From positions 1 through 64,000 of the forward strand of contig NZ_JASBVP010000001.1 of NCBI RefSeq assembly GCF_029961025.1: a stretch of 64,000 bases of DNA. Reading direction: 5' to 3'. The notes under the pieces were generated by a model. That model was given only the letters and a program-made list of their open reading frames with translations. It did no database searches and was not told the DNA's origin. Position 1 is the first letter of the stretch. Every line of letters starts with the position of its first letter. Source of the DNA: Mycobacterium sp. (lineage in GTDB: Bacteria > Actinomycetota > Actinomycetes > Mycobacteriales > Mycobacteriaceae). Shown piece by piece: positions 1-25,241 of this stretch. Both the position numbers and the translations under genes were made by a program.

Positions 1-71
1 ACAGCCTGCAACACCGTCGCCGTGCCGTAGCACACCGAGCAGCCCAGAGCCAGCAGCAACCCGATCAGCAC
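1..71 (-). CDS. N-terminal fragment of a membrane protein, cut by window edge
   Basis: Reading leftward from a GTG at 71, the first 23 codons encode a very hydrophobic segment (VLIGLLLALGCSVCYGTATV) that looks like the first transmembrane helix of a multi-pass membrane protein. Small residues in such a helix recall DMT/EamA-like permeases, but that is a guess. The rest of the gene lies beyond position 1. The 139 bp between this start and the vapC stop hold no gene; a 5-bp hairpin (GGGGC/GCCCC, 109-125) is the only structure seen. Confidence 0.45.
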   Translation of the reverse strand, partial: MLIGLLLALGCSVCYGTATVLQA

Positions 72-210
72 ACACCGACCCTACGAGACAGGTCAGCCGG
101 CTACCCACGGGGCGCTGAAAGCCCCTGTCGCACAGGTGTACTGCACCGGGTGCCGCGCTGGTATCGCGAATTGCCCTAAGCACCCGTCCGCTGCGCGGCC
201 AGGCTGTCGC

Positions 211-594
211 TCAGACCTTGATGATCGTGAGACCGGCCGCGCCGTCGAGGTTGGCAAAGTCGTCGTAAGGGGTGACGACGGGCAGCGCTCGCGAAGCAGC
301 GATGGCTGCGGTCCACAGGTCGTTGATCCGGACTCGGTGGCCAGTCTCGGCCAGATGGATGCGTAGCCGCGCCCACATGCGCGCCGCTTCCTCATCGACC
401 GGCAGCGTTTCCATGTCCGCAACGGATTCGAGGGTCGCGAGTTGCTGCGCCCGGCTATCGGAAGTGCGTGCGGCCAGCACGCCGACGGTGAGTTCGGCAA
501 GCGTGATCACAGTAGTCGCGACCTCGGTGGGGATCAGCAACTCCTCGAGTTGACGGCCCGTTTCGGAGGCGAGGAACACCGATGCGTCGAGCAA
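211..594 (-). CDS. vapC: VapC-type PIN-domain ribonuclease toxin
   Basis: A 127-aa PIN-domain protein, the usual VapC size. It shows the conserved acidic residues: Asp3 in the opening LDASVFLA strand, Glu34 in ITLAELTVG, Asp96 in RINDLWTAA and an Asp pair in VVTPYDDFANL. VapC toxins are Mg-dependent RNases that cut tRNA or rRNA and are blocked by their cognate antitoxin. It lies 20 bp downstream of the Phd-type antitoxin on the same strand. The start is a TTG at 594; no ATG or GTG lies in frame between the antitoxin stop and the PIN core, so the N-terminus is slightly uncertain. Confidence 0.85.
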   Translation of the reverse strand: MLDASVFLASETGRQLEELLIPTEVATTVITLAELTVGVLAARTSDSRAQQLATLESVADMETLPVDEEAARMWARLRIHLAETGHRVRINDLWTAAIAASRALPVVTPYDDFANLDGAAGLTIIKV

Positions 595-614
595 CCCCGC
601 TGGCGGCGTCTCGC

Positions 615-875
615 TTATCGAACAGGACCGAGATCGTCGGTGGTGTCGCCGGCGAGTAACGCGAGGTCGTCGCGCAAACCTGGATCCGCTTGCGCGCGGT
701 GCAACCGGGCCAGAAACTCGGTTTTGGCCAACCAGCGCCGACGCGGAAGCCCAGCCGCGGTAAGCAGTGCGACGGGGCGGCCCTCGACCGTGACGGTGAT
801 GTCTTCTCCGGCTTGCACGCGGCGAAGCACCCCCGCCGTATCGTTGCGCAAGTCACGGGAAGCCACTTCGGACAT
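615..875 (-). CDS. vapB: VapB antitoxin, Phd/YefM-type
   Basis: An 86-aa antitoxin. The N-terminal part (MSEVASRDLRNDTAGVLRRV, then GEDITVTVEGRPVALL) is the Phd/YefM DNA-binding fold found in many mycobacterial VapB proteins: residues 1-50 bind operator DNA and the C-terminal tail wraps the toxin. It is the first gene of a two-gene operon with the PIN toxin downstream. The ATG at 875 is preceded by a TACGTT -10 box six bases away, suggesting a leaderless transcript, and by overlapping inverted repeats likely to be the autoregulatory operator. Confidence 0.85.
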   Translation of the reverse strand: MSEVASRDLRNDTAGVLRRVQAGEDITVTVEGRPVALLTAAGLPRRRWLAKTEFLARLHRAQADPGLRDDLALLAGDTTDDLGPVR

Positions 876-881
876 GCCACA

Positions 882-899
882 AACGTACTACGTTCGTAG
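882..899 (-). promoter_or_regulatory. vapBC promoter and putative autoregulatory operator
   Basis: Two overlapping inverted repeats lie just upstream of the antitoxin start: ACGTA-C-TACGT (883-893) and CTACG-TT-CGTAG (888-899). On the minus strand a TACGTT -10 box (887-882) ends six bases before the ATG at 875, so the repeats cover the promoter. Phd-type antitoxins commonly repress their own operon through such sites. Confidence 0.5.
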
Positions 900-960
900 C
901 ATCGGGTTCGCTACGCTCCCGACCGCCGCGCCGACACGAACAAACTCCGCGGCGCACCGT

Positions 961-1153
961 CCCCAATGCGCTGCGGCGGGCGGCGCTGGTAGCGGGCCAG
1001 CATCGCGGCGGCGCTGCATCATCGATCGGTGCCGCTCCCGGGCCTCGGGGTTATTGAAGTCGGGGCCGGGCGCCTCGACGGCGAGCCGGCTGCCGGTGGC
1101 GGTCAGCGTCTGGATGCGCTCGAACAGCAGATCCTGGCCCGCGGCCGCGGCAA
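961..1153 (-). pseudogene. Fragment of a class I SAM-dependent methyltransferase gene
   Basis: On the minus strand this stretch encodes about 40 residues ([20 protein letters not shown] followed by [17 protein letters not shown]) that match, almost residue for residue, an internal part of the intact methyltransferase at 27937-28881 ([37 protein letters not shown]). Nothing of the N-terminal half or the C-terminal end remains, so it is a relic of a PF04072-type (Rv0281/Rv0726c-like) gene. A rightward open frame beginning at 1029 runs antisense through it and is not a real N-terminus. Confidence 0.75.
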
Positions 1154-1187
1154 GTCACTCTCCGGGGATCAGAAGCACTCACCGGTC

Positions 1188-1337
1188 GTGCAAGTGCGGG
1201 TGTCAGAGCACACGCGCGACAGGCTTCGGGCGATCGCCAAGGCCCGCGGCATGAGCGTTTCGAAGCGGTCCCGAAAGGTGCTCGACGAGTTCGTCGCACG
1301 CGAGGCGCTTGGTGATCCAAGCCCGAGGTGCTGGTAA
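1188..1337 (+). CDS. Short ribbon-helix-helix-like orphan antitoxin fragment
   Basis: From a GTG at 1188 this encodes 49 residues. The core (QVRVSEHTRDRLRAIAKARG then MSVSKRSRKVLDEFV) resembles the strand-helix-helix of a VapB/MazE-type DNA-binding antitoxin. No toxin gene follows and the C-terminal toxin-binding tail is missing, so this is probably the remnant of a toxin-antitoxin operon. The same frame stays open upstream to 1029 only because it crosses the methyltransferase relic. It could still encode a small DNA-binding peptide. Confidence 0.35.
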   Translation: MQVRVSEHTRDRLRAIAKARGMSVSKRSRKVLDEFVAREALGDPSPRCW

Positions 1338-1519
1338 CCCACCTTCGGTGCCGACATCCTTATGCCGGCGCGACAACGCGAGCACGCACCGGCCGAAGCT
1401 GCGGGGCCATGTGAAAGTTGCGACTGTACGAGAGCTCCTGAGCCCAATCCCACACGTGACGGCATGTGGCAGTTACCTCGCGCTGGTGTGCGTCGTAACG
1501 ATGCGGAAGGATGCGGGCC

Positions 1520-1666
1520 GTGAGTCTGGTGGAGCGGTTGGAGCGGGAGTGATATGCGGCGGCCACTGCGCGCCCGAGGGATTCGGCGAGGTACGCGGCG
1601 GTGCTGGAGCGGGCGGTGCTGACGTGCGACGCCGATCCGGAGGCGGCTGAGATGTTCGACCTGTAG
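1520..1666 (+). pseudogene. Possible broken small gene with in-frame TGA
   Basis: From a GTG at 1520 the frame reads MSLVERLERE, then TGA at 1550-1552, then continues for 37 codons (YAAATARPRDSARYAAVLER and on) to a TAG at 1664-1666. The composition is helix-rich and codon-like, so it may be a small gene interrupted by one nonsense change. The family is not recognised. Its end overlaps the palindromic operator of the next vapBC operon. Confidence 0.2.
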
Positions 1667-1681
1667 CACTAGTGCTACAGT
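1661..1681 (+). promoter_or_regulatory. 20-bp perfect palindrome over the vapB promoter
   Basis: CTGTAGCACTAGTGCTACAG at 1661-1680 is a perfect 20-bp palindrome. Its right end supplies the -10 box TACAGT (1676-1681), which ends six bases before the GTG of the downstream antitoxin at 1688. A dimeric Phd-type antitoxin bound here would directly occlude RNA polymerase, so this is a strong autoregulatory operator candidate and implies a leaderless mRNA. Confidence 0.65.
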
Positions 1682-1687
1682 AGCGTT

Positions 1688-1942
1688 GTGGCCAAGCAGA
1701 TCACCCAGCGGGAGCTGCGTAATAACAGCGGCGAGATCATGCGCCAGCTTGATCAAGGCGAGTCGTTCGTCGTGACCAGGAACGGCGTCCCGGTCGGCGA
1801 GCTGTGCCCGCTGCGCCGGCATCGATTCGTCGCCGCCGAAGCGGCTGTCGCCGCGTTCAGGGGCGCTCCGGCGGTGGACTTCGACCGGTTCCGACAAGAT
1901 CTCGATCGGGCAGCCAGCCAGGAGATCGCGCCTCGTGGCTGA
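1688..1942 (+). CDS. vapB: VapB antitoxin, Phd/YefM-type
   Basis: An 84-aa Phd/YefM antitoxin. The opening MAKQITQRELRNNSGEIMRQ and the following FVVTRNGVPVGELCPL are the canonical DNA-binding half; the tail from about residue 50 would cover the PIN active site of its partner. The GTG start at 1688 lies six bases after a -10 box embedded in a perfect palindrome, so the transcript is probably leaderless and autoregulated. The stop overlaps the start of vapC by 8 bp, indicating translational coupling. Confidence 0.88.
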   Translation: MAKQITQRELRNNSGEIMRQLDQGESFVVTRNGVPVGELCPLRRHRFVAAEAAVAAFRGAPAVDFDRFRQDLDRAASQEIAPRG

Positions 1943-2348
1943 GGCTGCGCGTGCGGCGCGGGGACTCATCGACACCTCCGTCGTGATCGATCTGGATCAC
2001 CTCGACGCCGAGCAGCTCCCCAGGGAACTGGCCATCAGCGCCCTTACTATGGCTGAGCTCGCCGCCGGTCCGCACGCAACGGCCGATGCCGGCGAGCGCG
2101 CACGACGTCAGGATCGCCTACAGCGAGCCGAGGCCAACTTCGATCCACTGCCGTTTGACAGCGACTCGGCGAGGGCCTATGGACGCGTCTACGCCGCGAT
2201 CGCCGCGACGGGTCGAAAGGCACGTGGTCCCCGAGCCGTCGATCTGTTGATCGCCGCCACCGCCGTGGCCACCAACCTGCCGCTGTACACACGCAACGTC
2301 GATGACTTCCAGGGGCTCGAACGCGTGCTGACCATCGTCGGCATCTGA
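1935..2348 (+). CDS. vapC: VapC-type PIN-domain ribonuclease toxin
   Basis: A 137-aa PIN toxin. Conserved acidic residues are visible: Asp13 in GLIDTSVVIDL, Glu41 in LTMAELAAG, Asp103 in PRAVDLLIAATA and an Asp pair in YTRNVDDFQGL. This is the arrangement of a metal-dependent RNase. The GTG start at 1935 overlaps the antitoxin stop by 8 bp. The 206 bp downstream contain no recognisable gene before the next antitoxin promoter. Confidence 0.88.
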   Translation: MAEAARAARGLIDTSVVIDLDHLDAEQLPRELAISALTMAELAAGPHATADAGERARRQDRLQRAEANFDPLPFDSDSARAYGRVYAAIAATGRKARGPRAVDLLIAATAVATNLPLYTRNVDDFQGLERVLTIVGI

Positions 2349-2504
2349 TTGCCGCGTGCTCGCGACTTCGGCGAGCGCCAATTCGCTGTCAGCCGCCGAC
2401 TCGGAGTTGGTGTTCACCACCGCGCGGTGCCGCGACGCGGTGTTTCGACTGGGTTGGAATCACCGTCCGGCACTGGTGCGAGCCGCGTTGCGGCGCGCGC
2501 CAAA

Positions 2505-2549
2505 GCACGTGTATTGTCATCATCCGATGCTGAAAAACGTGCCTGGAGG
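2505..2549 (+). promoter_or_regulatory. Promoter, operator-like repeat and RBS of third vapBC operon
   Basis: A TATTGT -10 box at 2512-2517 would start transcription near 2524. It is bracketed by the inverted repeat GCACGT (2505-2510) and ACGTGC (2537-2542). A strong GGAGG ribosome site (2545-2549) lies five bases before the ATG at 2555. Unlike the Phd-type vapB genes nearby, this ribbon-helix-helix antitoxin has a conventional leader. Confidence 0.45.
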
Positions 2550-2554
2550 TAGGG

Positions 2555-2749
2555 ATGCGGACGACGATCGCCTTGGATGATGACCTCGTCCGAGAAGCGC
2601 AGCGCTTGACGGGAACCACCGAAAAGAGCGCGTTGGTTCGTGAGGCCCTGCGAGCACTGATCGAGCGCGAAAGCGCCCGACGTCTAGCCAAACTGGCGGG
2701 CAGCGAACCCACGCTGGAAGCCGTCCCGAGGCGGCAGACAACACGGTGA
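2555..2749 (+). CDS. vapB: VapB antitoxin, ribbon-helix-helix type
   Basis: A 64-aa protein beginning MRTTIALDDDLVREAQRLTG, the typical ribbon-helix-helix VapB fold: a DNA-contacting strand followed by two helices (residues 1-45), then a basic toxin-binding tail. It is preceded by a GGAGG ribosome site and overlaps the following PIN toxin by 4 bp (GTGA). Antitoxins of this kind bind inverted repeats in their own promoter as dimers of dimers. Confidence 0.88.
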   Translation: MRTTIALDDDLVREAQRLTGTTEKSALVREALRALIERESARRLAKLAGSEPTLEAVPRRQTTR

Positions 2750-3117
2750 TCCTCGTCGACACGTCGATTTGGGTTAAGCACCTGCGCGTCGGCGACCCAC
2801 AGCTTGCCACCCTCCTGCAGGACGGACACGTGCTTACCCACCCGTGGGTCATCGGCGAACTCGCACTCGGCCAATTGTCTCGTCGCAGCGAGATTCTCGG
2901 GCTGCTCCACAACCTTCCGCACGCACAGACCGCAACCGACGCCGAGGTGCTGAACCTGGTCGAAAGCCGGCAGCTATTCGGGATCGGCATCGGTTACGTC
3001 GATGCGCACCTACTGGCCGCGACGCTCCTAACCGCAGGAGCCCGCCTGTGGACAGGCGACAAGCGGCTCGCGACAGTCGCCGCACAGCTCAGACTTAGCG
3101 CGAAGCCGACGGCCTAA
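2746..3117 (+). CDS. vapC: VapC-type PIN-domain ribonuclease toxin
   Basis: A 123-aa PIN protein opening MILVDTSIWVKHLR, with Asp5, Glu39 (VIGELALGQL), Asp86 (GYVDAHLLAA) and Asp104 (LWTGDKRLA) as the likely metal-binding carboxylates. The size and motif spacing are those of the VapC32/VapC group paired with ribbon-helix-helix VapB. Its GTG start overlaps the antitoxin stop, so the pair is translationally coupled. Confidence 0.9.
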   Translation: MILVDTSIWVKHLRVGDPQLATLLQDGHVLTHPWVIGELALGQLSRRSEILGLLHNLPHAQTATDAEVLNLVESRQLFGIGIGYVDAHLLAATLLTAGARLWTGDKRLATVAAQLRLSAKPTA

Positions 3118-3121
3118 GCGA

Positions 3122-3667
3122 GTGAACGCCGCTCACGGCGTCGGTGGGTGGTCCTTAGCCAGTGGGCGCCACCCTTTGCTGGCGTTATCGACGTGGGAGG
3201 AGTTCGGCGAACTGCCCCTCCGTCTTGAGCGTGCCGTCGTCGACGGTGAGCCGATGACGGATCTGGATTGGGCGCGAGTGCTGTTTTTGACTGAAGTCAC
3301 GTGTGCCAGCGACCTAATCGGGCCAGGCCTGGACTTCGCGAGGATGACCGAATGCGGCTGCTTTGTGGATCAGCCGGCGCAATCGACCGCGATCTCGAGG
3401 GCTGCGCAGATCTCGCGCATCCGGGCGTCGGCAAGCCGGCCAAGGCGGCTGACCAAGACCGCGACCGAGACGTTTTCCACCGAGTCCAGGTTGACCGCAC
3501 AGTGGCGCGGGATCGGGTCGGAATCCGGTTCCAGGACGACCTCGCTGGCGAGTCCCCGGATGGTCGTGGTGCAAGGCGCGACGAGGGCAGCCGGAGCCGA
3601 GGGATCGCCGCGTCACGGGACAGCACAACGACTGGGCGGCGCAATGCCGCGAGGGCCTCATCGATGA
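3122..3667 (+). pseudogene. Truncated copy of a conserved hypothetical gene (paralogue at 18533)
   Basis: Codons 21-74 (STWEEFGELPLRLERAVVDG and [20 protein letters not shown]) are closely related to the protein starting at 18533. After codon 77, near 3353, homology ends and the frame becomes arginine/serine-rich because it runs antisense through the mazEF relic. The gene is therefore probably a 5' fragment with its 3' part replaced. The family is not recognised. The GTG at 3122 begins 2 bp after the vapC stop, but the true start may be internal. Confidence 0.5.
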
Positions 3668-3755
3668 GGGCGGCGTCGGTGATTCCCGACCGCAGGCGCC
3701 GTGCACTGTCAAGGAGTTCGGCATCCACCGTCGTGCGCAGCCGTATGCGGCTCAT
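3370..3755 (-). pseudogene. Fossil mazEF module: antitoxin N-terminus joined to MazF C-terminus
   Basis: From an ATG at 3755 the first 40 codons ([20 protein letters not shown], then [15 protein letters not shown]) are a ribbon-helix-helix antitoxin. The frame then passes directly into [12 protein letters not shown], the MazF start-of-domain strand, without the antitoxin tail or the MazF N-terminus. In the next frame the MazF C-terminal half follows ([53 protein letters not shown]) to a stop at 3370. An internal deletion plus a frameshift thus collapsed an antitoxin-toxin operon into one broken gene. Confidence 0.75.
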
Positions 3756-3855
3756 GCCATGAGTATGCCACTAACACCACGGCCCGCTGCCGCGGCAAAC
3801 CCGGCACGGATGTCGGTGCCACGATGCATACTGCCTCCTGTCGAAGGAGATGCAG

Positions 3856-4908
3856 GTGACTACGGCCAGTTCGCGGGTTGGCCGCAGATTCGGCAAGTAC
3901 AGCCTGAGCCGGTTGCTGGGCGGGGGCGGGATGGGTGAGGTCTACGAGGCCTACGACACCGACAAGGGCAGAACCGTTGCCCTGAAAATCCTTGCCGAGC
4001 AGTACTCGCAGGACGAACGGTTCCGCACGCGCTTTCAGCGTGAGTCACACGCCGCGGCGATTCTACAAGAGCCACACGTCATTCCGATCCATGACTGGGG
4101 CGAAATCGCGGGCGCGCTGGGGCGCGCCGCCCAACGCGCACTGAAAGGAAACGGACACACGCCGTCTCAGACCGATACGATGCCGGCCCCCGGCAATGTG
4201 GGTCCTGGATGGTTCGGCGCGCAACCAGGCGGTCCTGCAACGGCTCCCACGGTTGCCGCGCCTGCCGGGGCGATGCGCGGCGGCTCGGGGACGCGAACGC
4301 TATTGATCGTTGTCGCAGTTGCCTCGGCGCTGCTCTTGGGTGGCGTTGGCGTCGTCATCGGTCTTCTCGCCAACCAAAAGTCCGGACCCGAACCCAGCGG
4401 TGCACCCACGACCGCCTACCCCACCCAGCCGTCCTCCGCCGCTCCTGAACCCGCCATCACCACCGAAATGCCTTCGGCGCCAGCAGCGCCCACGTCCACC
4501 CCCGAGTCGCCGCCGGCGGATCCCGAGGCGGCCGCTCTGCAACGGCTGCGCCAACGCGCGCGCTCGGACCGCCCCTTTGTCGCCGCCGAACTTGCCGATC
4601 ATTGGGTGCCGCAACTCAGTTCCAAGCGCCCAGGGGTCGTCGACGAGGGCGTGGTGTGGAATAACGCAATGATCCTGCAGGAGCATCTTGACCTGCGCGA
4701 GCAGTATCGCGATGTCCGACTGCTGTGGTCGGGCGACTGGTCGACATTCTCCGCGCCGGATTATTGGGTCACCGTCGTCGGCATCACCTACCCCGACGCG
4801 TCGGGTGCGCTGGCGTGGTGCAGAAGCCACGGTTTTGACCGCGACCACTGCGTCGCCAAGCTGATCAGCGCAACGCACCCGGTGCCGGGCAGCACCGCGT
4901 ACAACTGA
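3856..4908 (+). CDS. Receptor Ser/Thr kinase paralogue lacking the catalytic core
   Basis: A 350-aa intact frame related end to end to the kinase at 20008-21576 but missing 178 codons. It keeps the glycine loop (GGGGMGEVYEAYD) and the ATP-anchoring lysine (VALKILAEQ), then jumps from HDWGEI to AGALGRAAQRAL: the hinge, HRD catalytic loop, DFG and APE motifs are gone. The juxtamembrane linker, one transmembrane helix (about residues 150-175) and the extracellular C-terminal domain (HWVPQLSSKRPGVVDEGVVW, LLWSGDWSTFSAPDYWV) remain. It cannot phosphorylate. The GTG at 3856 is chosen over the ATG at 3850 because AAGGAG (3844-3849) is correctly spaced only for the GTG. It may be a decoy receptor or early-stage pseudogene. 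Confidence 0.8.
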   Translation: MTTASSRVGRRFGKYSLSRLLGGGGMGEVYEAYDTDKGRTVALKILAEQYSQDERFRTRFQRESHAAAILQEPHVIPIHDWGEIAGALGRAAQRALKGNGHTPSQTDTMPAPGNVGPGWFGAQPGGPATAPTVAAPAGAMRGGSGTRTLLIVVAVASALLLGGVGVVIGLLANQKSGPEPSGAPTTAYPTQPSSAAPEPAITTEMPSAPAAPTSTPESPPADPEAAALQRLRQRARSDRPFVAAELADHWVPQLSSKRPGVVDEGVVWNNAMILQEHLDLREQYRDVRLLWSGDWSTFSAPDYWVTVVGITYPDASGALAWCRSHGFDRDHCVAKLISATHPVPGSTAYN

Positions 4909-5063
4909 CCGGCGACGCCAGCGTTAGCCCGCGTGGGCGTGGATCGGCCAGACGCCACCGCCTACGCGGCCAGGCAGCGGATTGGTGATGCGCTGTCGCC
5001 GGGCGTGCGCCGCCGACCGACACCCGGTCCACGGCGGCCGCCGGCTTTTGGCAGACTATCCGC

Positions 5064-5567
5064 ATGGCACAGATAACGTTGCGTGGAAATCCGGTCAATA
5101 CGGTTGGCGAGCTACCGGCCGCGGGATCCCCGGCTCCCGGCTTCACCCTGACGGGCACCGACCTCGGCGCGGTCAGCAGCGCACAGTTTCACGGTAAACC
5201 CGTCTTGCTCAACATCTTTCCGTCCATCGACACACCCGTCTGCGCGACCAGCGTGCGGACCTTCAACGAACGCGCGGCCGGAAGTGGTCTGTCCGTGCTG
5301 TGCGTGTCGAAAGACCTACCCTTTGCGCAGCAACGGTTCTGCGGCGCGGAGGGCATCGAGAACGTCACGGCGGCATCGGCGTTCCGTGACAGCTTCGGCG
5401 AGGACTACGGTGTCACCATGGTCGACGGTCCGATGGCCGGGCTGCTGGCGCGGGCCGTGGTGGTGATCGGCGCGGACGGTAAGGTCGCATACACAGAGTT
5501 GGTGCCCGAAATCGCCGCCGAGCCCAACTACGATGCGGCACTGGCCGCACTGAGCTCGTCGGTGTAA
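5064..5567 (+). CDS. tpx: Thiol peroxidase Tpx
   Basis: A 167-aa atypical 2-Cys peroxiredoxin that reduces hydrogen peroxide and alkyl hydroperoxides with electrons from thioredoxin. The signature PSIDTPVCATSVRTFNERAA carries the peroxidatic cysteine (about residue 60), and a second cysteine in QRFCGAEGI (about residue 93) is the resolving one. The length matches Mtb Tpx (Rv1932). It stands alone, between the truncated kinase and a leftward vapBC operon; no OxyR/FurA-type site is obvious upstream. Confidence 0.95.
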   Translation: MAQITLRGNPVNTVGELPAAGSPAPGFTLTGTDLGAVSSAQFHGKPVLLNIFPSIDTPVCATSVRTFNERAAGSGLSVLCVSKDLPFAQQRFCGAEGIENVTAASAFRDSFGEDYGVTMVDGPMAGLLARAVVVIGADGKVAYTELVPEIAAEPNYDAALAALSSSV

Positions 5568-5693
5568 ATCCCCAGCCCCGCACAAGCTGTTCCATCCAGG
5601 GCGCGTCATCCGGGGAGCGAGCGCTGGCTGACCTCGGCTACGCCAGAAACTCCCACTCGGCGTTTGTATTTCGCGACAGCATGACGTATGCCG

Positions 5694-6092
5694 TCAGCCC
5701 GTCCAGATCCGAAGCGGTGTGCATGTGGCGAGGCGGTCGAAGTCCTCGTCGGCATGCAACATCGGGGCACCGGTACGCACGCAGGGAGCGGCGATCAAGC
5801 AGTCGAGCGTCTTGCGAACGGTGACGCCGGCGCGTCGCGCCGCGCGATACAGCCTGGCCGCGAGCACGAAATCATCAAGATCCTGCAGGCGAAGGATCGG
5901 GAAGGCGCGCAGATGCCGCTCCACCAGCGCCGCCTCCCGATCCGACCGCAGCCCCTGCAGAACCTCGGTCAGGATGACGTCGGTGAGCCCGATGGGTTGT
6001 CCCGATTCAATGAGCTGCACACAACGCTGGGCCTGCGGGGCGGGGGTGTCGTTCAAGACGTCGATCCACACACTCGTGTCAACGACGATCAC
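5694..6092 (-). CDS. vapC: VapC-type PIN-domain ribonuclease toxin
   Basis: A 132-aa PIN toxin opening MIVVDTSVWIDVLN. Asp5, Glu43 (ILTEVLQGL), Asp97 (RKTLDCLIAAP) and an acidic cluster at HADEDFDRLA form the expected metal site. It overlaps the preceding ribbon-helix-helix antitoxin by 4 bp (6089-6092), so the toxin is translated as the coupled second gene. Confidence 0.9.
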   Translation of the reverse strand: MIVVDTSVWIDVLNDTPAPQAQRCVQLIESGQPIGLTDVILTEVLQGLRSDREAALVERHLRAFPILRLQDLDDFVLAARLYRAARRAGVTVRKTLDCLIAAPCVRTGAPMLHADEDFDRLATCTPLRIWTG

Positions 6093-6286
6093 GGCCGGCC
6101 GCGTCGACTCTCGGCCAGGTCGCCGTCCCAGTGCACCTTCCCGCGCAGGTCCAGCACGCCGATCTGGCGATGCCGGGCGACGAGTTCACGCAGCGCCAGG
6201 TCCACCGTCTCGCGCTTGGTGCGGGTGCCGACCAGACGCTGCGCTTCGCGCAAGACGTCGTCATCGATGTCGATGTTCGTCCGCAT
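6089..6286 (-). CDS. vapB: VapB antitoxin, ribbon-helix-helix type
   Basis: A 65-aa antitoxin opening MRTNIDIDDDVLREAQRLVG, very like the VapB at 2555. The open frame extends 30 codons further upstream, but the ATG at 6286 is chosen because the ribbon-helix-helix strand starts there and a TAGCTT -10 box lies seven bases upstream, implying a leaderless mRNA. The tail LRGKVHWDGDLAESRRGR would contact the toxin groove. Confidence 0.88.
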   Translation of the reverse strand: MRTNIDIDDDVLREAQRLVGTRTKRETVDLALRELVARHRQIGVLDLRGKVHWDGDLAESRRGRP

Positions 6287-6293
6287 ACACGTA

Positions 6294-6316
6294 AAGCTAC
6301 ACCAGCTCTTGTGTAG
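6294..6316 (-). promoter_or_regulatory. vapBC promoter and operator-like inverted repeat
   Basis: On the minus strand TAGCTT (6299-6294) is a -10 box seven bases before the ATG at 6286. It overlaps one arm of the inverted repeat CTACAC (6297-6302) / GTGTAG (6311-6316), which is a plausible VapBC autoregulatory site. Confidence 0.4.
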
Positions 6317-6689
6317 ATCATTCCTGCCACCGACCTCCCCGCTTGACCCGCTGACGCGCCCGGCGACGTCAGGCACGTCAGGCGTGTTTTGATGGGATGA
6401 AGGGGGCGGGGCCTCCGCTCCTCGTGACGTTGCCGGCGGATACTGGGGGCGTTACTTCCACGAACCACGGGATGCACCGATGAGCGAGTAGGAGGATGGA
6501 CGGTTCGTGGGGGCCGATCGGCATTGCCAGCGGTCGGTGATCGTGCGTCAATCCGAGTCCGGTGAGCAGCTCCCAGCGGTACGGATCGTCAACGACCCGG
6601 GTGCGTTGCCGAGCCGAGCTGGTCGCGCTCGATCTGGCCTGAAAGCCCAGACCCATGCGGTGCTGGCCAAAGCAGGGGGACGGCTTCGC

Positions 6690-10968: not shown

Positions 10969-11169
10969 ATGAGAAGGACTTTCGTCGCTACATTCGCGGT
11001 CGGGTTGATCGTCGCAGTGTTCGGTCTGATCTGGGCGCTGCAGGGATTCGGAGTGCTTGGCGGTAGCCCGATGAGCAACACCACCACCTGGTCCATCATT
11101 GGTCCCATCACGGCGCTGATCGGCATCGTGATTGCGGTATTCGGTTGGCGGAAACTCTCGTCGAAATAG
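10969..11169 (+). CDS. Small two-helix membrane protein
   Basis: A 66-aa protein with two predicted transmembrane helices (about residues 5-27 and 43-61) joined by a Gly/Ser/Thr loop and ending in a basic WRKLSSK. The family is not recognised. It is immediately followed, convergently, by the molybdopterin oxidoreductase gene (4 bp between stops). Confidence 0.6.
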   Translation: MRRTFVATFAVGLIVAVFGLIWALQGFGVLGGSPMSNTTTWSIIGPITALIGIVIAVFGWRKLSSK

Positions 11170-11173
11170 TGCT

Positions 11174-12721
11174 TCAGGTCTGCACCACGGCGAAGTCCAC
11201 CGTGTGCCAGCCGGTGGCGCCGTCGGGGAAAGTACCAACCCGATCTGCAGTCTGGACAGCTCCGGTGTTGTCGGTGGCGCGCACGGTGATGGTGTGTTTC
11301 CCAGGGCTTTTCGCCTGCCAGGGGAAGCTCCACAACCGCCACGTCTCGTTGGAATAGCTCGCGCCCAGTTGCGCGGGCTGCCACACCCCATCGTCGATGC
11401 GGACCTGCACGGCCCGCACGCCACGATTTTGTGCCCACGCGACACCGCCGAACACCACGGGCCCCGTCGGCACCTTCTGACCCCTTTTCGGCACGTCGAT
11501 CCGCGACTCGGTCTTGATGGGCCCGCGCGGCGCCCAGCCCTGCCGCGTCCAGTACGCCTTTGCTCTGTCGAAGCGGGCCAGCTCCATCTCGACGACCCAC
11601 TTGGTGGCCGACACGTACCCGTAGAGCCCGGGTACTACCAGCCGGGCCGGGTAGCCATGCTCGATCGGCAGCGGCTGACCGTTGAGGCCGACGGCCAGCA
11701 GCGCGTCACGGCCATCGGTGAGCGCCTCCACCGGTGTGCCGACGGTGAACCCGTCGATCGACGTCGAGAGCAACATGTCGGCGTCCGGGTGCACACCGGC
11801 CGCCGCCAGCAGGTCGGCCACCCGGTAGCCGGTCCAGACACCGGTCGAAATCAGGTTTCCACCAATGGGATTCGACACACAGGTCAACGTTATCACCGTT
11901 TCGACGACGTCGAAGCCGGCGAGGTCATCGAAGCTGTAAGTGGCTTCGCGGTTCACCATGCCGTGGATGCGCAGCCGCCAGTCGCGGCGGCTGAGTTGGG
12001 GAACACTGAGCGCGGTGTCCACCCGGTAAAAGTCGACGCTGGCGGTGACAAAGCTCGGCAGCGCAACGCCCTTCGGTTGCACGTCGGCAGGTATGGGCGG
12101 CGCCGATGTGCGCGGTCGGGGAAGCGTGAAGCTGTTGCGGTCAGCGGCCACCGAATGCGTCAGCCGCGTGATGACCGCACCCAGCACGCCACTTACCACC
12201 CCGAATCCGAGCAATCCGAACATGACCAACCTGCGCCTGCCGGCATCCGGCTCGTCGTGGTCGGCGCCGTCTTCCGGGTTTCCCAGGCCGGGCCGGAACC
12301 GACGGGTGAGCAAGCGTAGCGCCGCCACGCCGCAGGCGGCGCCCGCGACGGTGGGGATCGTGTCGAGTGCCGTCGCACCCGGCCGCGACAGCACCGCGAG
12401 GCATCCGAGCACGCCCGCGGCGGCGATCACGGCGCTGCCGAGCGGGCGGCGCTGAGTCTCGAGGGTCCCGGCGATCGCCGCGATGGCGGCGATCACCACG
12501 AGCACGACGACGGCCAGGAAGAGTTTGTCCAGAGAGCCCAGGGTTGAAATCGCCCACTCCTTGACGGGCCCCGGTGTCAGGTCGACGACCACAGAGCCGA
12601 TCGCAGCACGCGCATCGGCCCGCGCACCGAACGGGATGCCCACCAGCTGGGTCACCCCGAGCGCGACGGACCCGGCGGCGACCCCGGCAATCATCCGCCC
12701 CTCCGGCGGGGAGACAGCCAT
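11174..12721 (-). CDS. Membrane-bound molybdopterin-dependent oxidoreductase
   Basis: A 515-aa protein. The N-terminal 190 residues hold four or five transmembrane helices; the rest is a sulfite-oxidase-type Mo-cofactor domain facing outside (RDWRLRIHGMVNREATYSFD), the Cys-containing core VETVITLTCVSNPIGG that supplies the Mo ligand, SIDGFTVGTPVEAL and the HGYPARLVVPGLYGYVSAKW-like stretch, followed by an Ig-like dimerisation domain (about 410-515). It resembles Mtb Rv0218. The physiological substrate is unknown. A TAGAGT -10 box seven bases upstream predicts a leaderless transcript. Confidence 0.88.
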   Translation of the reverse strand: MAVSPPEGRMIAGVAAGSVALGVTQLVGIPFGARADARAAIGSVVVDLTPGPVKEWAISTLGSLDKLFLAVVVLVVIAAIAAIAGTLETQRRPLGSAVIAAAGVLGCLAVLSRPGATALDTIPTVAGAACGVAALRLLTRRFRPGLGNPEDGADHDEPDAGRRRLVMFGLLGFGVVSGVLGAVITRLTHSVAADRNSFTLPRPRTSAPPIPADVQPKGVALPSFVTASVDFYRVDTALSVPQLSRRDWRLRIHGMVNREATYSFDDLAGFDVVETVITLTCVSNPIGGNLISTGVWTGYRVADLLAAAGVHPDADMLLSTSIDGFTVGTPVEALTDGRDALLAVGLNGQPLPIEHGYPARLVVPGLYGYVSATKWVVEMELARFDRAKAYWTRQGWAPRGPIKTESRIDVPKRGQKVPTGPVVFGGVAWAQNRGVRAVQVRIDDGVWQPAQLGASYSNETWRLWSFPWQAKSPGKHTITVRATDNTGAVQTADRVGTFPDGATGWHTVDFAVVQT

Positions 12722-12724
12722 CTG

Positions 12725-12734
12725 AGTTACTCTA
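12725..12734 (-). promoter_or_regulatory. Leaderless promoter of the molybdopterin oxidoreductase
   Basis: On the minus strand TAGAGT (12734-12729) lies seven bases before the ATG at 12721. The surrounding GAGT-T-ACTC (12725-12733) is a small inverted repeat that could be a regulator site. Confidence 0.4.
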
Positions 12735-13168
12735 CTCTCAGCCTAGGTACCCCAAATGCCTTGCCGTGCCGGCAAACCGGTGATACTGACCTGCCGGGCG
12801 TCATGCTCGCGACGCCACGTCGCCGGCGATTACCCCGGTGCGCGGCGATCGAGACTCGCGCGCCGGAAGCTGCGCAGGAAGCAGCTGCCAGGGAAGTGAC
12901 GACTGTCACCTTGTGAGGCCGGTGAGCGGTTCGTCGGTTAGGCTGTTGGCAACGTCGGTGCCGGCAACCGCAGGCACCGACACGTCGTGGAACACCCCGT
13001 CATCCACCGGCATCCACCGGGTCCTGATGGTTCGCGCATCCAAGCGCGAGCTTTTTCTCACGGCGACTCGATTTTGCCCACCGGCAATCTCGCCACCTTG
13101 TGCTCACCGTCGCACGTCGAGGCCGTCGCGCCGATGGGGCACACCCGATGCCTGAGAGGCACCAAAAC
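12735..13168 (+). other. Long leader region upstream of the DEAD-box helicase
   Basis: This stretch encodes no convincing protein. A candidate -10 box TAGGCT at 12939-12944 would give a leader of about 215 nt before the helicase start. It contains a direct repeat of CATCCACCGG near 13000-13020, a terminator-like hairpin at 13032-13056 and a GAGAGG ribosome site about 10 bases before the ATG at 13169. Confidence 0.4.
13032..13056 (+). terminator. Intrinsic terminator-like hairpin in helicase leader (attenuator?)
   Basis: TCGCGC, loop ATCCAA, GCGCGA forms a 6-bp GC-rich stem (13032-13049) followed by GC and five T residues. Classic U-tract terminators are rare in mycobacteria, so its presence about 113 bp before a helicase gene on the same strand suggests premature termination control. 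Confidence 0.45.
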
Positions 13169-14437
13169 ATGACCACCCGAAGAACTTTCGACGCTCTCGG
13201 CGTCCCCGAACCGCTGATCGCCGTGCTCGCCGCACAGGGGATCACCACCCCGTTTCCGATCCAGGCCGACACCCTGCCCGACGCCCTCGCCGGCCGCGAC
13301 GTGCTCGGGCGCGGCAAAACGGGCAGCGGCAAGACCCTGGCCTTTGCCATCCCGCTGGTCGCCCGGCTGGCCTCGGGTAAGCGCCGGCCCTCGCGGCCGC
13401 GCGGCCTGGTGTTGGCGCCCACCCGCGAGTTGGCGAGCCAAATCACCGCCGTGCTCGCCCCGCTGGCGACCACCTCCGGCCTGAAAGTTGGCACGATCTT
13501 CGGCGGGGTGCCGCAAACCCGTCAGGTGGCCGCGCTCAAGGCGGGAATCGACATCGTCGTCGCCTGTCCGGGACGGTTGGAAGACCTGATGAGGCAACGC
13601 CTGATCGGCCTGGACGCGGTGCGGATCACCGTGATCGACGAAGCCGATCACATGGCGGATCTGGGTTTTCTACCGGGCGTGACCCGCATCCTGGCCGCCA
13701 CCCCGGCGGCCGGCCAGCGGCTGCTGTTTTCCGCGACGCTCGATGGCGACGTCGACACGCTGGTCAAGCGATTCCTGCGCAGCGACGCGGTGTCGCACTG
13801 CGCCGACGAGGACCACCTGCCGACGACCGCGATGACCCACCACGTCTTTCACGTCGCCAGCGCCGACGCCAAAAAGGAGCTGGTACACCGGCTGGCTTCC
13901 GGTACCGGCCGGCGCATCCTGTTCATGCGCACCAAGCATCGGGCGCGCACCCTGGCGCGTCAGCTCACCGAGGCCGGGGTCCCGTCGGTTGACCTGCACG
14001 GCAACCTGTCTCAGCCCGCGCGGAACCGCAACCTCGCCGCGTTCAGCGCCGGCACGGCACGCGTGCTGGTGGCCACCGACATCGCCGCGCGCGGCGTGCA
14101 CGTCGACGGGGTGGAGCTGGTGGTGCACGTAGACCCCCCGGCCGAGCCCAAAGCCTATCTGCACCGCTCCGGGCGCACCGCGCGCGCCGGCAGCGCCGGC
14201 GACGTCGTCACCGTGGTGCTACCCGAGCAACGCAAAGACCTTTCGGCGCTGATGCGCAAGGCCGGCATCGACGTCTGCCCGCAACAGGTGACCGCCCACT
14301 GTGAGCCGGTCACCAAGCTGGTCGGCGAGGCCGCGGCCTACCAGGCGCCCGCCCCCAAGGCCGCTCCGGGGTCACGCGCCGCGGCCGGCAGGGCGCGGGG
14401 GCGCCGATCCGCACGGGGGCCGCAGCGGCGCAAGTAA
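13169..14437 (+). CDS. rhlE: DEAD-box ATP-dependent RNA helicase, RhlE-like
   Basis: A 422-aa helicase with the complete DEAD-box motif set: F-motif/Q-motif (TTRRTFDALG, TPFPIQADTLP), Walker A GRGKTGSGKTLAF, APTRELASQ, DEAD in VIDEADHMADLG, SAT in LLFSATLDGD, and HRSGRTARAG (motif VI). The basic C-terminal tail (RAAAGRARGRRSARGPQRRK) suits RNA binding. It matches Mtb Rv3211 in type but lacks its longer C-terminus. It unwinds RNA during ribosome assembly or mRNA turnover. The ATG at 13169 follows a GAGAGG site; an upstream ATG at 13148 is possible. Confidence 0.92.
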   Translation: MTTRRTFDALGVPEPLIAVLAAQGITTPFPIQADTLPDALAGRDVLGRGKTGSGKTLAFAIPLVARLASGKRRPSRPRGLVLAPTRELASQITAVLAPLATTSGLKVGTIFGGVPQTRQVAALKAGIDIVVACPGRLEDLMRQRLIGLDAVRITVIDEADHMADLGFLPGVTRILAATPAAGQRLLFSATLDGDVDTLVKRFLRSDAVSHCADEDHLPTTAMTHHVFHVASADAKKELVHRLASGTGRRILFMRTKHRARTLARQLTEAGVPSVDLHGNLSQPARNRNLAAFSAGTARVLVATDIAARGVHVDGVELVVHVDPPAEPKAYLHRSGRTARAGSAGDVVTVVLPEQRKDLSALMRKAGIDVCPQQVTAHCEPVTKLVGEAAAYQAPAPKAAPGSRAAAGRARGRRSARGPQRRK

Positions 14438-14685
14438 CCCGAGATGTCGCAAAGCTATCCCCTGTGGCCGAACTAGATTCGGCCGTGGCGTCGGTCGCGT
14501 CCTCAAACCGATGTAAAGGGGGCCACCGCAGGTCGATTAGCACCGGAACCTGAACGCCACCGTGGCGTGGGTGGCGTTCTATCTGCGCGGCTTCGTCGAG
14601 GTCGAGAGTATTGCGTACCCAGTCGCCGGCCCGAGCGGACACCACCGGGTACCGTCACCGGTGACACCCGAGCCGGGTTTCCCGC

Positions 14686-14691: not shown

Positions 14692-14697
14692 TGCCCC

Positions 14698-14994: not shown

Positions 14995-14996
14995 GC

Positions 14997-20007: not shown

Positions 20008-21576
20008 GTGACCACGGCCAATGCCCGCGGCGGCCGCATGTTCGGCAAGTATCGGCTGACCCGCTTACTCGGCAGGGGCGGGATGGGCGAGGTCTATGAG
20101 GCCTACGACACCGAAAAGGGCAGAACCGTCGCCCTGAAAATCCTCGCCGAGCAGCACTCGCACGACGAACAGTTCCGCACCCGGTTTCAGCGTGAGTCGC
20201 ACGCGGCGGCGATCCTGCAAGAGCCGCATGTGATCCCGATCCACGACTGGGGAGAGATCGACGGCAGCCTCTACATCGACATGCGCCTGGTGACGGGCCA
20301 AACGCTGCACGAGTTGCTCAAAGATGGCCCCCTGCAGCCGGATCGGGCCGTGGCCATCATCACCCAGGTCGCCGCGGCATTGGATGCCGCGCATGCCGAG
20401 GGGCTGATTCATCGCGACGTGAAGCCGCAGAACATCATCGTGACACCCGCTGATTTCGCCTACCTGGTCGACTTCGGCATCGCCGAGGCCCAAGGCGACA
20501 CCCGTCTTACGATGGTCGGCTATCACATCGGCAGTTTCGACTACATGGCCCCCGAACGGTTCAGCGACCGGCCGACGACGCCCGCAGCGGATGTCTATTC
20601 CCTGGCCGCCGTGCTGCACCAGGCGCTGACGGGGCAGACCCCGTTTCCGGCTCACGGCCTCGAGCAGGTCATGGCGGCTCAGCTCACCGCGCCGCCGCCG
20701 CGCCCCAGCATCATCAATCCCCGCGTTCCCGCGTCGTTTGACGACGTCATCGCCCGGGGCATGGCCAAGGAACCCGGCGACCGCTACGGTAGCGCGGGCG
20801 CCCTGGGGCGCGCCGCCCAGCGCGCGCTGCACGCCAACACCCGAAACCCGTTGCACACCCGGGTGCCGCCCGGACCCGGCGGCGTATTGCCCGCCGCCGG
20901 CCCTGCCGGCGCGCCGACCCGACCGGCCGGCCCGGTAGCCGGACCGCCCCTGGTGCGTCCCGGACGTGCGCCCGAACGCCGGTCGCGATGGCCGGCGCCG
21001 GTGATTGTCGTGGTGGCATCGGTGCTGCTGCTGAGCGGTATCGGCGTCGGCGCCGGTTTTCTGGCCCACCAAAAGCCGGGGCCCGCATACCCCACCGAGA
21101 CAACCTCCCCCGCCGCCGAACCCGGCTACCAACCGCCGTCCCCACCGCCGACCTCGACGCCGAGCGCGCTACCGTCGGCACCGGTGGATCCCGAGGAGGC
21201 GGCCCGGCAACGGCTGCGCCAGCTCGCGCGTGCGGACCGCCCGTTCGTCAGCGCCGAACTCGCCGATCACTGGGTGCCGCAACTCAGTTCCAAACGCCCG
21301 GGGGTTGTCGACGACGGCGTCGTGTGGGATAACGCAAGGATCCTGCAGGAGCATCTGGCCCTGCGCGAGGAATATCCCGGAGTGCGGCTGCTGTGGTCGG
21401 GCGACTGGTCGACCTTTTCCGCACCCGACTTTTGGGTCACGATCGTCGGCATCACCTTCCCCGACTCCTCCGGTGCCCTGGCGTGGTGCAAACACCGGGA
21501 TTTTGACCGTGACCACTGCCTGGCCAAGGTTGTCAGCACGACCCTCCCGATCGCGGGAAGCACCGCCTTGAACTGA
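20008..21576 (+). CDS. Transmembrane Ser/Thr protein kinase (PknE/PknF/PknH-like)
   Basis: A 522-aa receptor kinase. The cytosolic Hanks-type domain (about 13-275) is complete: GRGGMGEV glycine loop (22-29), VALK Lys44, HRDVKPQN catalytic loop (Asp137), DFG (155-157) and MAPE. A Pro/Ala-rich linker leads to one transmembrane helix (about 327-350) and an extracellular domain of about 150 residues with HWVPQLSSKRPGVVDDGVVW and LLWSGDWSTFSAPDFWV, also found in the catalytically deleted gene at 3856. The GTG at 20008 follows a good AAGGAGG site. The ligand and substrates cannot be told from sequence. Confidence 0.92.
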   Translation: MTTANARGGRMFGKYRLTRLLGRGGMGEVYEAYDTEKGRTVALKILAEQHSHDEQFRTRFQRESHAAAILQEPHVIPIHDWGEIDGSLYIDMRLVTGQTLHELLKDGPLQPDRAVAIITQVAAALDAAHAEGLIHRDVKPQNIIVTPADFAYLVDFGIAEAQGDTRLTMVGYHIGSFDYMAPERFSDRPTTPAADVYSLAAVLHQALTGQTPFPAHGLEQVMAAQLTAPPPRPSIINPRVPASFDDVIARGMAKEPGDRYGSAGALGRAAQRALHANTRNPLHTRVPPGPGGVLPAAGPAGAPTRPAGPVAGPPLVRPGRAPERRSRWPAPVIVVVASVLLLSGIGVGAGFLAHQKPGPAYPTETTSPAAEPGYQPPSPPPTSTPSALPSAPVDPEEAARQRLRQLARADRPFVSAELADHWVPQLSSKRPGVVDDGVVWDNARILQEHLALREEYPGVRLLWSGDWSTFSAPDFWVTIVGITFPDSSGALAWCKHRDFDRDHCLAKVVSTTLPIAGSTALN

Positions 21577-22553: not shown

Positions 22554-25241
22554 TTAGGCCCGCGGCCATTGCTCGGCGCCGGCCTGGCCGACCGCGACCA
22601 GCAGCATGAACGTCCGGGTCCCCTTGCCGGCGGCCGTGGTGAGAACGACCGGGTAATACCCGTCGAGCACGGACTGGGCCACGCTGATCGCCACCGTCGC
22701 GGTGGCCGAACCGTCGGCGGCGAAGCGTCCCGATACCGGTGCCACCGCGATCCCCGCACCGTAGGAGGTACCGGTGACGGTGTAGTCGGGGGCGCCGCCG
22801 CCGATCATCCGTTGCGCATCGACGGTCACGGTCGCCGTGGTTCCCGGCGCGACCGCGACGATGTCGGGGACGACGTTGACGGTCACCGCCGAGCCACCCT
22901 CACCGAATGCCGGCGGTGATGCGGATTCCACAGTGCCCCAGCCGTTGTCGGGAGTGGCGGAGAGCGCGAACACCAGCTCGCCGCCGGTGCGGGTGATCGA
23001 CTCCGGGAGATATGTTCGCTCGGTGGGCCGCCCATCGACACTGAGGCCGTTGATGTACTTCAGGCGGTTGGGTGCCGAGACTCGGGACGCGGAGATGCGA
23101 ATGAATCTCCCTGCGGGCAGCGCGATCACGATGCGGTCGAATAGCGGTGTGTGCACCGTGAGGATCGCCGTTCCCGGGGTGCTGGGATACAGGCCGAGCG
23201 CGGCCCAGACATACCAGCTGGACAGCGCGCCCAGGTCGTCATTGCCCGGCTCCCCGTCGGGTGTCGGCCCGAACAGGCTGCTGCGCACCCGGTCGACCAG
23301 GTCCTGGGTTTTCCACGGCTGACCGACGTAGTTGTACAGCCACGGCACCCCGAAGCCCGGCTCGTTGCCGATCCACAGGTAGGGCTTGTCCGGGCCCGCG
23401 TTGAGTTCCTTTGTGAAGCCGTCGAGCCGCTCGGCCACCGCCTTGCGGCCGCCCAGGGCGGTCACCAGGCCCGTGATATTCTGCGGCACCCACCACACGT
23501 ACTGCGCGGCGTTGCCCTCGTCGAAGCCGGGCTGGCCGAAGCAGAACGGCGGGGGCTCGACGAAGCCGGGTCCGCGGGGAAAGAAGCCGTAGACGTTGCG
23601 GGGCGAGATGTAACGGGTGGTGGGGTTGAACAGGTTCTGCCAATACTGCGCCCGGCGCTGGAATTCGGCGGCTGTCGCGGAATCACCCAGCGCGTCGGCG
23701 AATCGCGAAATCGCGAAATCGTCAACCGACCACTCCAGCGTGATCGAGGCACCGGGGACGGAGCCGTCGACGCACGACTCGGACGTCACCGGAAGGTAGC
23801 CTCGCTGCAGGTAGGTGGCGATTCCCGGGCGCTCCACGTAACCGTCCCGCCCGGCACCGCCGTGGGTTGCCGCGCCGACCATGTAACGCAGTGCCGTGTG
23901 GACGTCAAAGTCCTTGGCCCCGAACGTGTAGAGATTTACGATCAGCGGTACCACGCTGTCTCCGGTCATCTCGGCGGTCGCGGCATTGGCCAGCGCCCAC
24001 CGCGGAAAAGAGCCGCTTTGCTCCGCGTCGTTCACCAGCGATTGGGCCATGTCGCTGGCACGCTCCGGAAACAGCAACCCGTGCAGGGCGGCGACACCCC
24101 GGTAGGTGTCCCAGTCGGAGAAGTTGGTGTATTGGGCGTGCCCCGCGGTCACCGTGTGGATGACTCCGTCGAATCCGATGTAGCGACCGTCGACGTCGTT
24201 GAAGGTGTTGGGGTGCAGCAGCGAATGGTACAAGGCGGTGTAGAACGTCGCCACGTCATCGCTATTGGCGCCGGCCACGGCGATGCGCGACAACGCGGCG
24301 TTCCATTCCCGCGTCGCCGCGGCGCGCACGTCGTCGAAGCTTGCCCCGCCCTCGGCGGCGAGGTTGGCTCGCGCCCCGTCCACTCCGACGTAGGACAGCG
24401 CGGTGCGCACCTCGATCACCGAGCCGGACGGGAACTCCACGTAACCGCCGCTGTCACTCGAAAACGCAACGCGGCCAGCGGGATACACCCAGAACCCGTC
24501 CCAGGTGCCGTAGGAGGTGAACGGACGGTTGAACTTCATCGCGAAATACACCGTGTAGGCGTTCTTCTTGCCGCAAAATCCGCCGCTGGTCGCCGCTCCG
24601 GTGATCGTGGTGTTGTCGGCACCGATCTGCAGGGTCGCGGCGGAGTTCCCCGCCAGCGACCCGCCGGCCCGAACCAGCAGCCGGGCAGGACGAGCGTTGT
24701 GCGGGTAGTGGAACCGCCCGACGCCAGTGCGGGTGGTGGCGGTGAGCTCCGCGCTCACCCCGGTGTCGGGAAACCGCACCGTGTAGTAGCCCGGCACACC
24801 CACCTCGGTGTCGTCGTGGGCGATTTTCTCGGTGGCGTCCCAGGGGTGCGTGCCGATCGCGGCGGTGGTGGGCAGCATCGAGATGTCGCCGAAGGCCGCA
24901 CAGCCCACCGAGGCGTGGGTCATGCTGAACCCGGTGACGCGATCTTTGTGGTAGTTGTAGCCGGCGTAGGTGTCGGTGGTGTCAGGTGAGTACTGCACCA
25001 TGCCGAATGGCATTGAGGCTCCGGGGAAGTTGTTGATCTCCCCCACGGTCGGGCCTCCCCTGCCGGTGCCGATCAGGGTGTTGACGTGGTCGACAGGGTT
25101 CACGACGAACGCCGGCTCACTCTCGTAGGCCGTGGGCGGAGCGGTCATCACCATCGCGCCGACGAGCATCACCGCTACCAGTACCGCGAGCCCGCCACGT
25201 GCTCCGGCGCGTCTTAGCATCCGCTGCTTTTGACGACGCAA
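22554..25241 (-). CDS. Secreted GH92 alpha-1,2-mannosidase
   Basis: An 895-aa exported glycoside hydrolase, like Mtb Rv0584. A signal sequence (about residues 10-40) precedes the GH92 catalytic region: [34 protein letters not shown], the calcium/acid-rich [20 protein letters not shown], and [20 protein letters not shown] with the catalytic acid region; a C-terminal beta-sandwich of about 150 residues follows. GH92 enzymes remove mannose from glycans, here probably cell-envelope mannan or host glycans. The start at 25241 or 25220 (MLRRAG) is undecided. It is divergent from the next gene. Confidence 0.92.

What the first reader, a model, noticed from the sequence alone, without database searches (positions are those of the whole stretch)
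3856..4908. Receptor kinase gene with an exact in-frame deletion of the catalytic core
Aligned by eye with the intact paralogue at 20008-21576, this gene lacks the equivalent of 20261-20794, i.e. 534 bp or 178 codons, joined at a 2-bp CG microhomology. The glycine loop and ATP-binding lysine, linker, transmembrane helix and extracellular sensor stay in frame, as does a good AAGGAG site. A membrane sensor with a stump of the kinase N-lobe could compete with the intact kinase for ligand or dimer partners (a decoy receptor), or it is a recent pseudogene that happened to keep its frame.
Basis: partly seen in the sequence, partly recalled or inferred. Interest (0 to 1): 0.75.

Follow-up and report, generated by a model that had tools for sequence, protein, structure and literature searches.

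The report
Transferred receptor kinase missing its core
A mycobacterium carries a second copy of a membrane receptor kinase, likely gained recently from a relative of Mycobacterium botniense, from which an in-frame deletion of 534 bases has cut out the catalytic core; it is likely a decaying gene, although it would still encode a membrane-anchored sensor.

Summary
The gene at 3856-4908 lacks exactly 534 bp (178 codons) against the intact paralogue B (20008-21576) and against a far closer intact orthologue, P0002 of M. botniense (528 aa; 97% and 95% identical in the retained parts). Catalytic loop, DFG and activation loop are gone; glycine loop, lysine, linker, predicted membrane helix and sensor stay in frame. 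Kinase B is followed by a GH92 gene, as the M. botniense kinase is by GH92 sequence, so the stump is likely a recently transferred extra copy. Its tract has a second deletion (176 bp, in a vapB). Twelve substitutions separate stump and intact gene: 9 nonsynonymous, 3 synonymous, the neutral expectation, but none of the 9 hits a conserved column (P about 0.03). I saw the same deletion in no other protein or genome examined. Best reading: a decaying transferred copy. A decoy receptor is not excluded: the sensor is predicted to fold and occurs on many kinase-free proteins; overexpressed kinase-free PknB fragments inhibit mycobacterial growth (PMC4632501).

The parts
1627..4911 (.). tract 98.8% identical to M. 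botniense-like G417:C2 575691-579687; likely transferred recently; ends 3 bp after the kinase stop codon
1688..1942 (+). Phd/YefM-like antitoxin in the tract
   Evidence: 27.9 bits, just under the Pfam cut-off of 29.8
1935..2348 (+). PIN-domain (VapC-like) toxin in the tract
2555..2749 (+). VapB antitoxin in the tract
2746..3117 (+). PIN-domain (VapC-like) toxin in the tract
3640..3755 (-). remnant of a VapB gene; 176 bp present in M. botniense are missing at 3640/3641
3845..3850 (+). AAGGAG ribosome-binding site of the stump gene; 42 of the 55 bases before the GTG are shared with kinase B
3856..4908 (+). kinase stump gene, 350 codons
3856..4107 (+). retained kinase N-lobe part (84 codons) with glycine loop and lysine K44
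4106..4108 (+). junction of the 534-bp deletion (2-bp CG overlap)
4291..4371 (+). predicted membrane helix, residues 146-172
4522..4875 (+). predicted folded extracellular sensor domain, residues 223-340
20008..21576 (+). intact kinase B, likely the resident orthologue
22554..25241 (-). GH92 glycosidase gene after kinase B (a HepT/nucleotidyltransferase pair lies between); a 76% identical stretch lies beside the M. botniense kinase

Best explanation
The gene is a second copy of a transmembrane serine/threonine kinase, likely acquired recently on a 3.3-kb tract from an M. botniense-like donor, which lost 534 bp spanning the catalytic core and is now likely decaying under little or no selection. 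Shown: the exact deletion, the intact donor-type allele, the 98.8% identity of the tract against an average of 80% for other aligned parts of the contig, and the intact second kinase B. Inferred: the transfer came first, beside a resident kinase that already did the job. The extra copy was then free to lose DNA, probably by illegitimate end joining (the 534-bp deletion here and the 176-bp deletion in the vapB upstream). The 534-bp deletion kept the frame by chance (1 in 3) and is likely too recent for stops to have built up. What is still translated would be a kinase-dead membrane protein with an incomplete N-lobe and a folded sensor, with little or no effect on the cell.
For: Intact orthologue P0002, 528 aa, recorded on a contig of 2,080,852 bases, the length of G417:C2. 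Tract 1627-4911 at 98.8% against a mean of 80.3% over 104,132 aligned bases elsewhere on the contig. Two deletions in the tract copy, 176 and 534 bp. 9 nonsynonymous to 3 synonymous changes, omega 1.07; for the intact pair (M. botniense kinase against B) omega is 0.09 in the N-lobe, 0.13 over the kinase and 0.26 in the sensor. At least 9 of 12 has P 0.0007 at omega 0.13 and 0.02 at 0.26; neutral simulations expect 8.3-8.8. The stump's branch is 0.017 against 0.0061 for M. botniense. Kinase B is followed by GH92 as in M. botniense. No second case of this deletion: of the other 119 proteins listed (best 120 of 1481), 117 are 505-556 aa long and the two short ones begin inside the kinase; 2 of 383 genomes, the own one and G417, match the stump gene at E 1e-150; in 0 of 38 short open frames that carry the sensor does the N-lobe stand in the same frame. 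In the model the last strand of the stump and the junction (residues 69-93) fall below pLDDT 50. Genes of this family also break elsewhere: 5 of those 38 are kinases split by a frame break, though sequencing error is not excluded.
Against: No stop or frameshift in the 350 codons, though 69% of neutral simulations also have no stop. None of the 9 amino-acid changes falls in a column at least 90% conserved (P 0.026-0.033), which hints at selection for part of the time. Five of the 9 lie in the fast-evolving linker, which by itself lifts omega. The two toxin-antitoxin pairs of the tract give 6 nonsynonymous to 6 synonymous, so the kinase does not clearly stand out. Omega between close sequences is inflated in general (recalled). 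Start codon, AAGGAG and the region before the gene are kept. The direction of transfer is not certain: the gene left of the tract (213-902) matches the M. botniense sequence left of it at 83%, so recombination either way or through a third species is possible. The grouping of B with the M. botniense kinase has uneven support (93/39).
Confidence: 0.66

Rival explanations
1. Decoy (dominant-negative) receptor: the stump is made, sits in the membrane, and would bind the ligand or the dimer partner of kinase B without transmitting a signal.
For: Frame, start, AAGGAG, predicted membrane helix and confidently modelled sensor are kept. Intact kinase B with the same sensor type is in the same genome. 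Changes avoid conserved columns. An overexpressed kinase-free PknB membrane-PASTA fragment inhibits mycobacterial growth, and its authors raise competition for ligand (PMC4632501, abstract and passages seen).
Against: Neutral ratio of changes. The deleted form was seen in this genome only, within the limits. The sensors of stump and B differ (78% identity), so sharing a ligand is not given. Ligand and dimerisation of this sensor are unknown.
Confidence: 0.17
2. New kinase-free sensor protein: the deletion recreated an architecture that is already common, membrane helix plus sensor without kinase, with a function of its own such as binding an envelope ligand.
For: 32 of 38 short open frames with the sensor show no kinase match in the frame or in the stretch fetched before it, one of them at a contig edge; 91 of the 120 best-listed relatives of one such protein carry no kinase Pfam domain (counted by hand; the search admits only lengths of about 200-635 aa); Nocardia has such proteins too.
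Against: Those proteins have other N-terminal parts, many with an extra middle domain; the stump has a broken kinase lobe instead. No selection shown for it.
Confidence: 0.1
3. Assembly artefact: an intact gene was collapsed in assembly.
For: The gene lies 3.9 kb from the contig end in an island with several related toxin-antitoxin genes.
Against: The junction has only 2 bp of overlap, both sides match one M. botniense gene, and the identical protein is recorded with another contig of 13,871 bases.
Confidence: 0.04

Closest known systems
PknE-like mycobacterial transmembrane Ser/Thr kinases (PDB 2h34, kinase domain)
   Same: Best solved sequence match of the kinase part of paralogue B (E 2.1e-94)
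   Different: The stump lacks everything from the fifth N-lobe strand to the last C-lobe helix; its sensor has no significant sequence match among solved structures
M. botniense MBOT_06190 (P0002)
   Same: 97% and 95% identical in the two retained parts
   Different: Has the 178 codons that the stump lacks; stands beside GH92 sequence
MUDP_075, a Ser/Thr kinase gene on M. marinum plasmid pMUM003 called a likely pseudogene (PMC4238996, passage seen)
   Same: A mycobacterial Ser/Thr kinase gene on acquired DNA that has lost its kinase function
   Different: Broken by frameshift, not by in-frame removal of the core
Kinase-free PknB membrane-PASTA construct (PMC4632501, abstract and passages seen)
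   Same: Membrane helix and sensor without kinase
   Different: Laboratory construct, overexpressed, different sensor

Membership tests
active transmembrane Ser/Thr kinase | glycine loop and ATP-binding lysine | tested here: met
   G22, G24, G25, G27 and K44 kept
active transmembrane Ser/Thr kinase | catalytic loop HRD, DFG and activation loop | tested here: not met
   all within the missing 178 codons
active transmembrane Ser/Thr kinase | one membrane helix and extracellular sensor | tested here: met
   predicted helix 146-172 and sensor 223-340; prediction only
decaying gene (pseudogene) | intact orthologue in a relative and loss of a functional part | tested here: met
decaying gene (pseudogene) | relaxed selection on the remaining codons | tested here: inconclusive
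   omega 1.07, interval 0.27-6.1; 0 of 9 changes in conserved columns
decaying gene (pseudogene) | stops or frameshifts | tested here: not met
   none in 350 codons
decaying gene (pseudogene) | no product or no effect | not testable with these tools
   needs RNA, protein and mutant data
recently transferred tract | identity to the donor far above the genome background | tested here: met
   98.8% against a mean of 80.3% on the same contig
recently transferred tract | extra copy beside a resident orthologue | tested here: met
   kinase B followed by GH92, as in M. botniense; tree support for B as sister only 93/39
recently transferred tract | mobile element at the ends | not tested
   no search for integrases or insertion sequences was made; an 8-base word stands at both ends
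decoy receptor | sensor present, kinase absent | tested here: met
decoy receptor | this kinase-less form kept in more than one species | tested here: not met
   seen in this genome only: best 120 of 1481 proteins, 383 genomes at DNA level, 38 short open frames of a cut list
decoy receptor | lowers signalling of the intact kinase | not testable with these tools
   needs an experiment

The most novel reading that the evidence does not exclude
A natural dominant-negative receptor caught at birth: a horizontally acquired receptor kinase that lost its catalytic core in one in-frame step, in a genome with a resident intact kinase of the same sensor type, in a family whose sensor already lives on kinase-free membrane proteins.
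Probability: 0.15. Interest if true: 0.7.

Novelty: new member of a known kind. Interest (0 to 1): 0.36.

Why it matters
As a decaying copy it is ordinary, but its history is unusually readable: donor-type allele, resident kinase and deletion are all visible, so the first steps of receptor-kinase loss can be followed. If it were active, it would be a natural bacterial counterpart of decoy receptors. The by-product may matter more: the sensor domain, which matched no Pfam or NCBIfam model here, is shared by these kinases and by many kinase-free proteins of mycobacteria and Nocardia, which gives a way to look for its ligand.

Tried and rejected
Chimera of paralogues A and B: rejected, because both halves match one M. 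botniense gene. Same deletion elsewhere: none found within the limits. P0023 (288 aa, contig of 3,044 bases) and P0095 (403 aa, longest contig 52,185) looked like shortened relatives, but both begin inside the kinase and lack the N-lobe; not counted as the same deletion. Loci that matched only part of the stump looked kinase-free, but L034, L038, L039, L040, L047 and L092 are full-length kinases; of those I looked at, only the Nocardia ones (L044-L046) lack a kinase in the frame. Glycine-loop change R23G as a sign of decay: dropped, because that column is variable (K, Q, T, R, E, S). Sensor alone modelled without an alignment: poor (pLDDT 48.6), so no fold search with it. Fold searches with the stump model listed mainly kinases, matched at the N-lobe (50 rows each); the second look covered mainly residues 3-76, so the sensor's fold was barely tested. 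Sigma-70-type promoter scan 3600-5100: nothing; it does not cover mycobacterial promoters. Paper searches: searches found none; one each (passages, or abstract and passages, seen); nothing on point (listings only); one search gave four listings, none opened. In these seven searches I saw no description of this stump or of natural kinase-deleted variants of this family. In the tree L036 was left out by the program for too few columns. In the background figure rows of 300 bases or less were dropped, and some paralogous rows are included. One search was this report sent in a wrong format.

Full report
Check. The gene at 3856-4908 is an open frame of 350 codons from GTG (ATG at 3850 is possible), with AAGGAG before it. 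Pfam matches only the first quarter of the kinase profile, against nearly the whole profile in paralogue B at 20008-21576. A protein search gave a far better yardstick than the paralogue: P0002, 528 aa, M. botniense MBOT_06190, 97% identical over 266 residues and 95% over 88. 528 minus 350 is 178 codons, and the DNA comparison shows one gap of 534 bp with a 2-bp overlap. A 2-bp overlap is what chance gives (23%).

What is lost and kept. The retained 84 codons hold strands 1-3, the glycine loop, lysine K44 and helix C; the deletion takes the hinge, catalytic loop, DFG, activation loop and nearly the whole C-lobe, and the frame resumes at the end of the last kinase helix. In an AlphaFold2 model on 50 sequences (mean pLDDT 67, pTM 0.44) residues 11-60 (block means 80-91), a membrane helix (146-172) and the sensor (223-340, block means 81-96 with one of 70) are defined, while residues 69-93, the last strand of the stump and the junction, fall below 50. 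The product could not carry out the kinase reaction as known from this family; that is an inference from missing motifs, not an assay.

Where it came from. The window's contig aligns with G417:C2 (length 2,080,852, the same as the contig of P0002, so very likely M. botniense) at a mean of 80.3% over 104,132 bases in rows over 300 bases; 11079-18007 reaches 87-96%, and 1627-4911 aligns at 98.8%. 2 of 383 genomes at least 99% complete, the own one and G417, match the stump gene at E 1e-150. The tract holds two antitoxin-PIN toxin pairs, a degenerate stretch, a vapB and the kinase, in the same order in both genomes. It ends 3 bp after the kinase stop. In M. botniense a GH92 sequence, seemingly broken into several frames, follows the kinase at once; in this window an intact GH92 gene follows kinase B, with a HepT/nucleotidyltransferase pair between. 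In Mycobacterium sp. 1274756.6 (L027; L127 is the same contig by length) a kinase of this family is followed by the membrane-protein gene that stands after GH92 here; among the loci scanned this was the only genome with that order. Kinase B is the nearest row by path to the M. botniense kinase apart from the stump, with uneven support (93/39). I read B as the resident orthologue and the stump as a transferred extra copy. Direction is inferred; the sequence left of the tract (213-902) matches the sequence left of it in M. botniense at 83%, so recombination through a shared neighbour is possible.

Decay or function. In the tract copy a 176-bp deletion removes the end of a vapB, and small indels lie in the degenerate stretch before the kinase; the M. 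botniense copy has one single-base gap there too. Between stump and intact gene there are 12 substitutions: 9 change an amino acid and 3 do not, omega 1.07, approximate interval 0.27-6.1. The intact pair, M. botniense kinase against B, has omega 0.09-0.26. Nine or more of 12 would be unlikely at omega 0.13 (0.0007) or 0.26 (0.02) and is usual without selection. The stump's branch is 2.8 times as long as that of M. botniense. Against this, none of the 9 changes lies in a column at least 90% conserved (P about 0.03), five lie in the naturally fast linker, and the toxin-antitoxin genes of the same tract also give 6 to 6. So selection is undecided on numbers alone. The deletion, redundancy with B, the lack of a second case and the second deletion tip the balance to decay.

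Why a decoy stays possible. A survey of the sensor found matches in 139 of 383 genomes of the genus at E 1e-15 (the match list was cut). I inspected all 38 matches on the printed list, the own genome apart, whose open frame is under 450 codons (20, 18 more). In none does the kinase N-lobe stand in the sensor's frame, so none repeats the stump. Five are kinases split by a frame break (L175, L176, L185, L187, L188), one is a sensor fragment (L194), and 32 show no kinase match in the frame or before it (one, L199, at a contig edge); 11 of these, by eye, are one family with a common N-terminus. Of the 120 best-listed relatives of one kinase-free protein, 91 carry no kinase Pfam domain (my count of the table), including Nocardia proteins. 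So sensors of this kind exist without a kinase elsewhere. Overexpressed kinase-free PknB fragments inhibit growth of mycobacteria, and the authors raise competition for the ligand (PMC4632501; abstract and passages). What the present sensor binds, and whether stump and B can pair, is unknown; their sensors are 78% identical.

Verdict. A real, exactly described deletion in a likely transferred receptor-kinase gene, most likely on its way out. It is a known kind of event, with an unusually clear history; the decoy reading keeps about one chance in six.

Noticed in passing
window 4522-4875; loci L177-L184, L186, L189-L193, L195-L212, L044-L046: The sensor domain matched no Pfam or NCBIfam model and occurs on kinase-free proteins in many mycobacteria and in Nocardia; three listed relatives are fused to a PQQ-like repeat domain.
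   Followed up: partly
window 11079-18007: This stretch aligns with M. botniense-like G417 at 87-96%, above the 80% mean of the contig: perhaps an older exchange or slow genes.
   Followed up: no
window 16556-17236 and 17258-17941: Tandem pair of LppA-like lipoprotein genes, 88% identical at protein level.
   Followed up: no
window 21627-22461: HepT-like and nucleotidyltransferase gene pair between kinase B and GH92; in M. botniense only some 40 bases separate kinase and GH92 sequence.
   Followed up: no
window 1-6400: Island with at least four PIN-domain toxin genes (211, 1935, 2746, 5694) and a VapB remnant.
   Followed up: partly
window 1626-1633 and 4912-4919: The 8-base word GCGACGCC stands at both ends of the transferred tract; it occurs 7 times on the + strand of the window.
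   Followed up: no
L175, L176, L185, L187, L188: Five kinases of this family in other genomes are split by a frame break; real losses or sequencing errors.
   Followed up: partly
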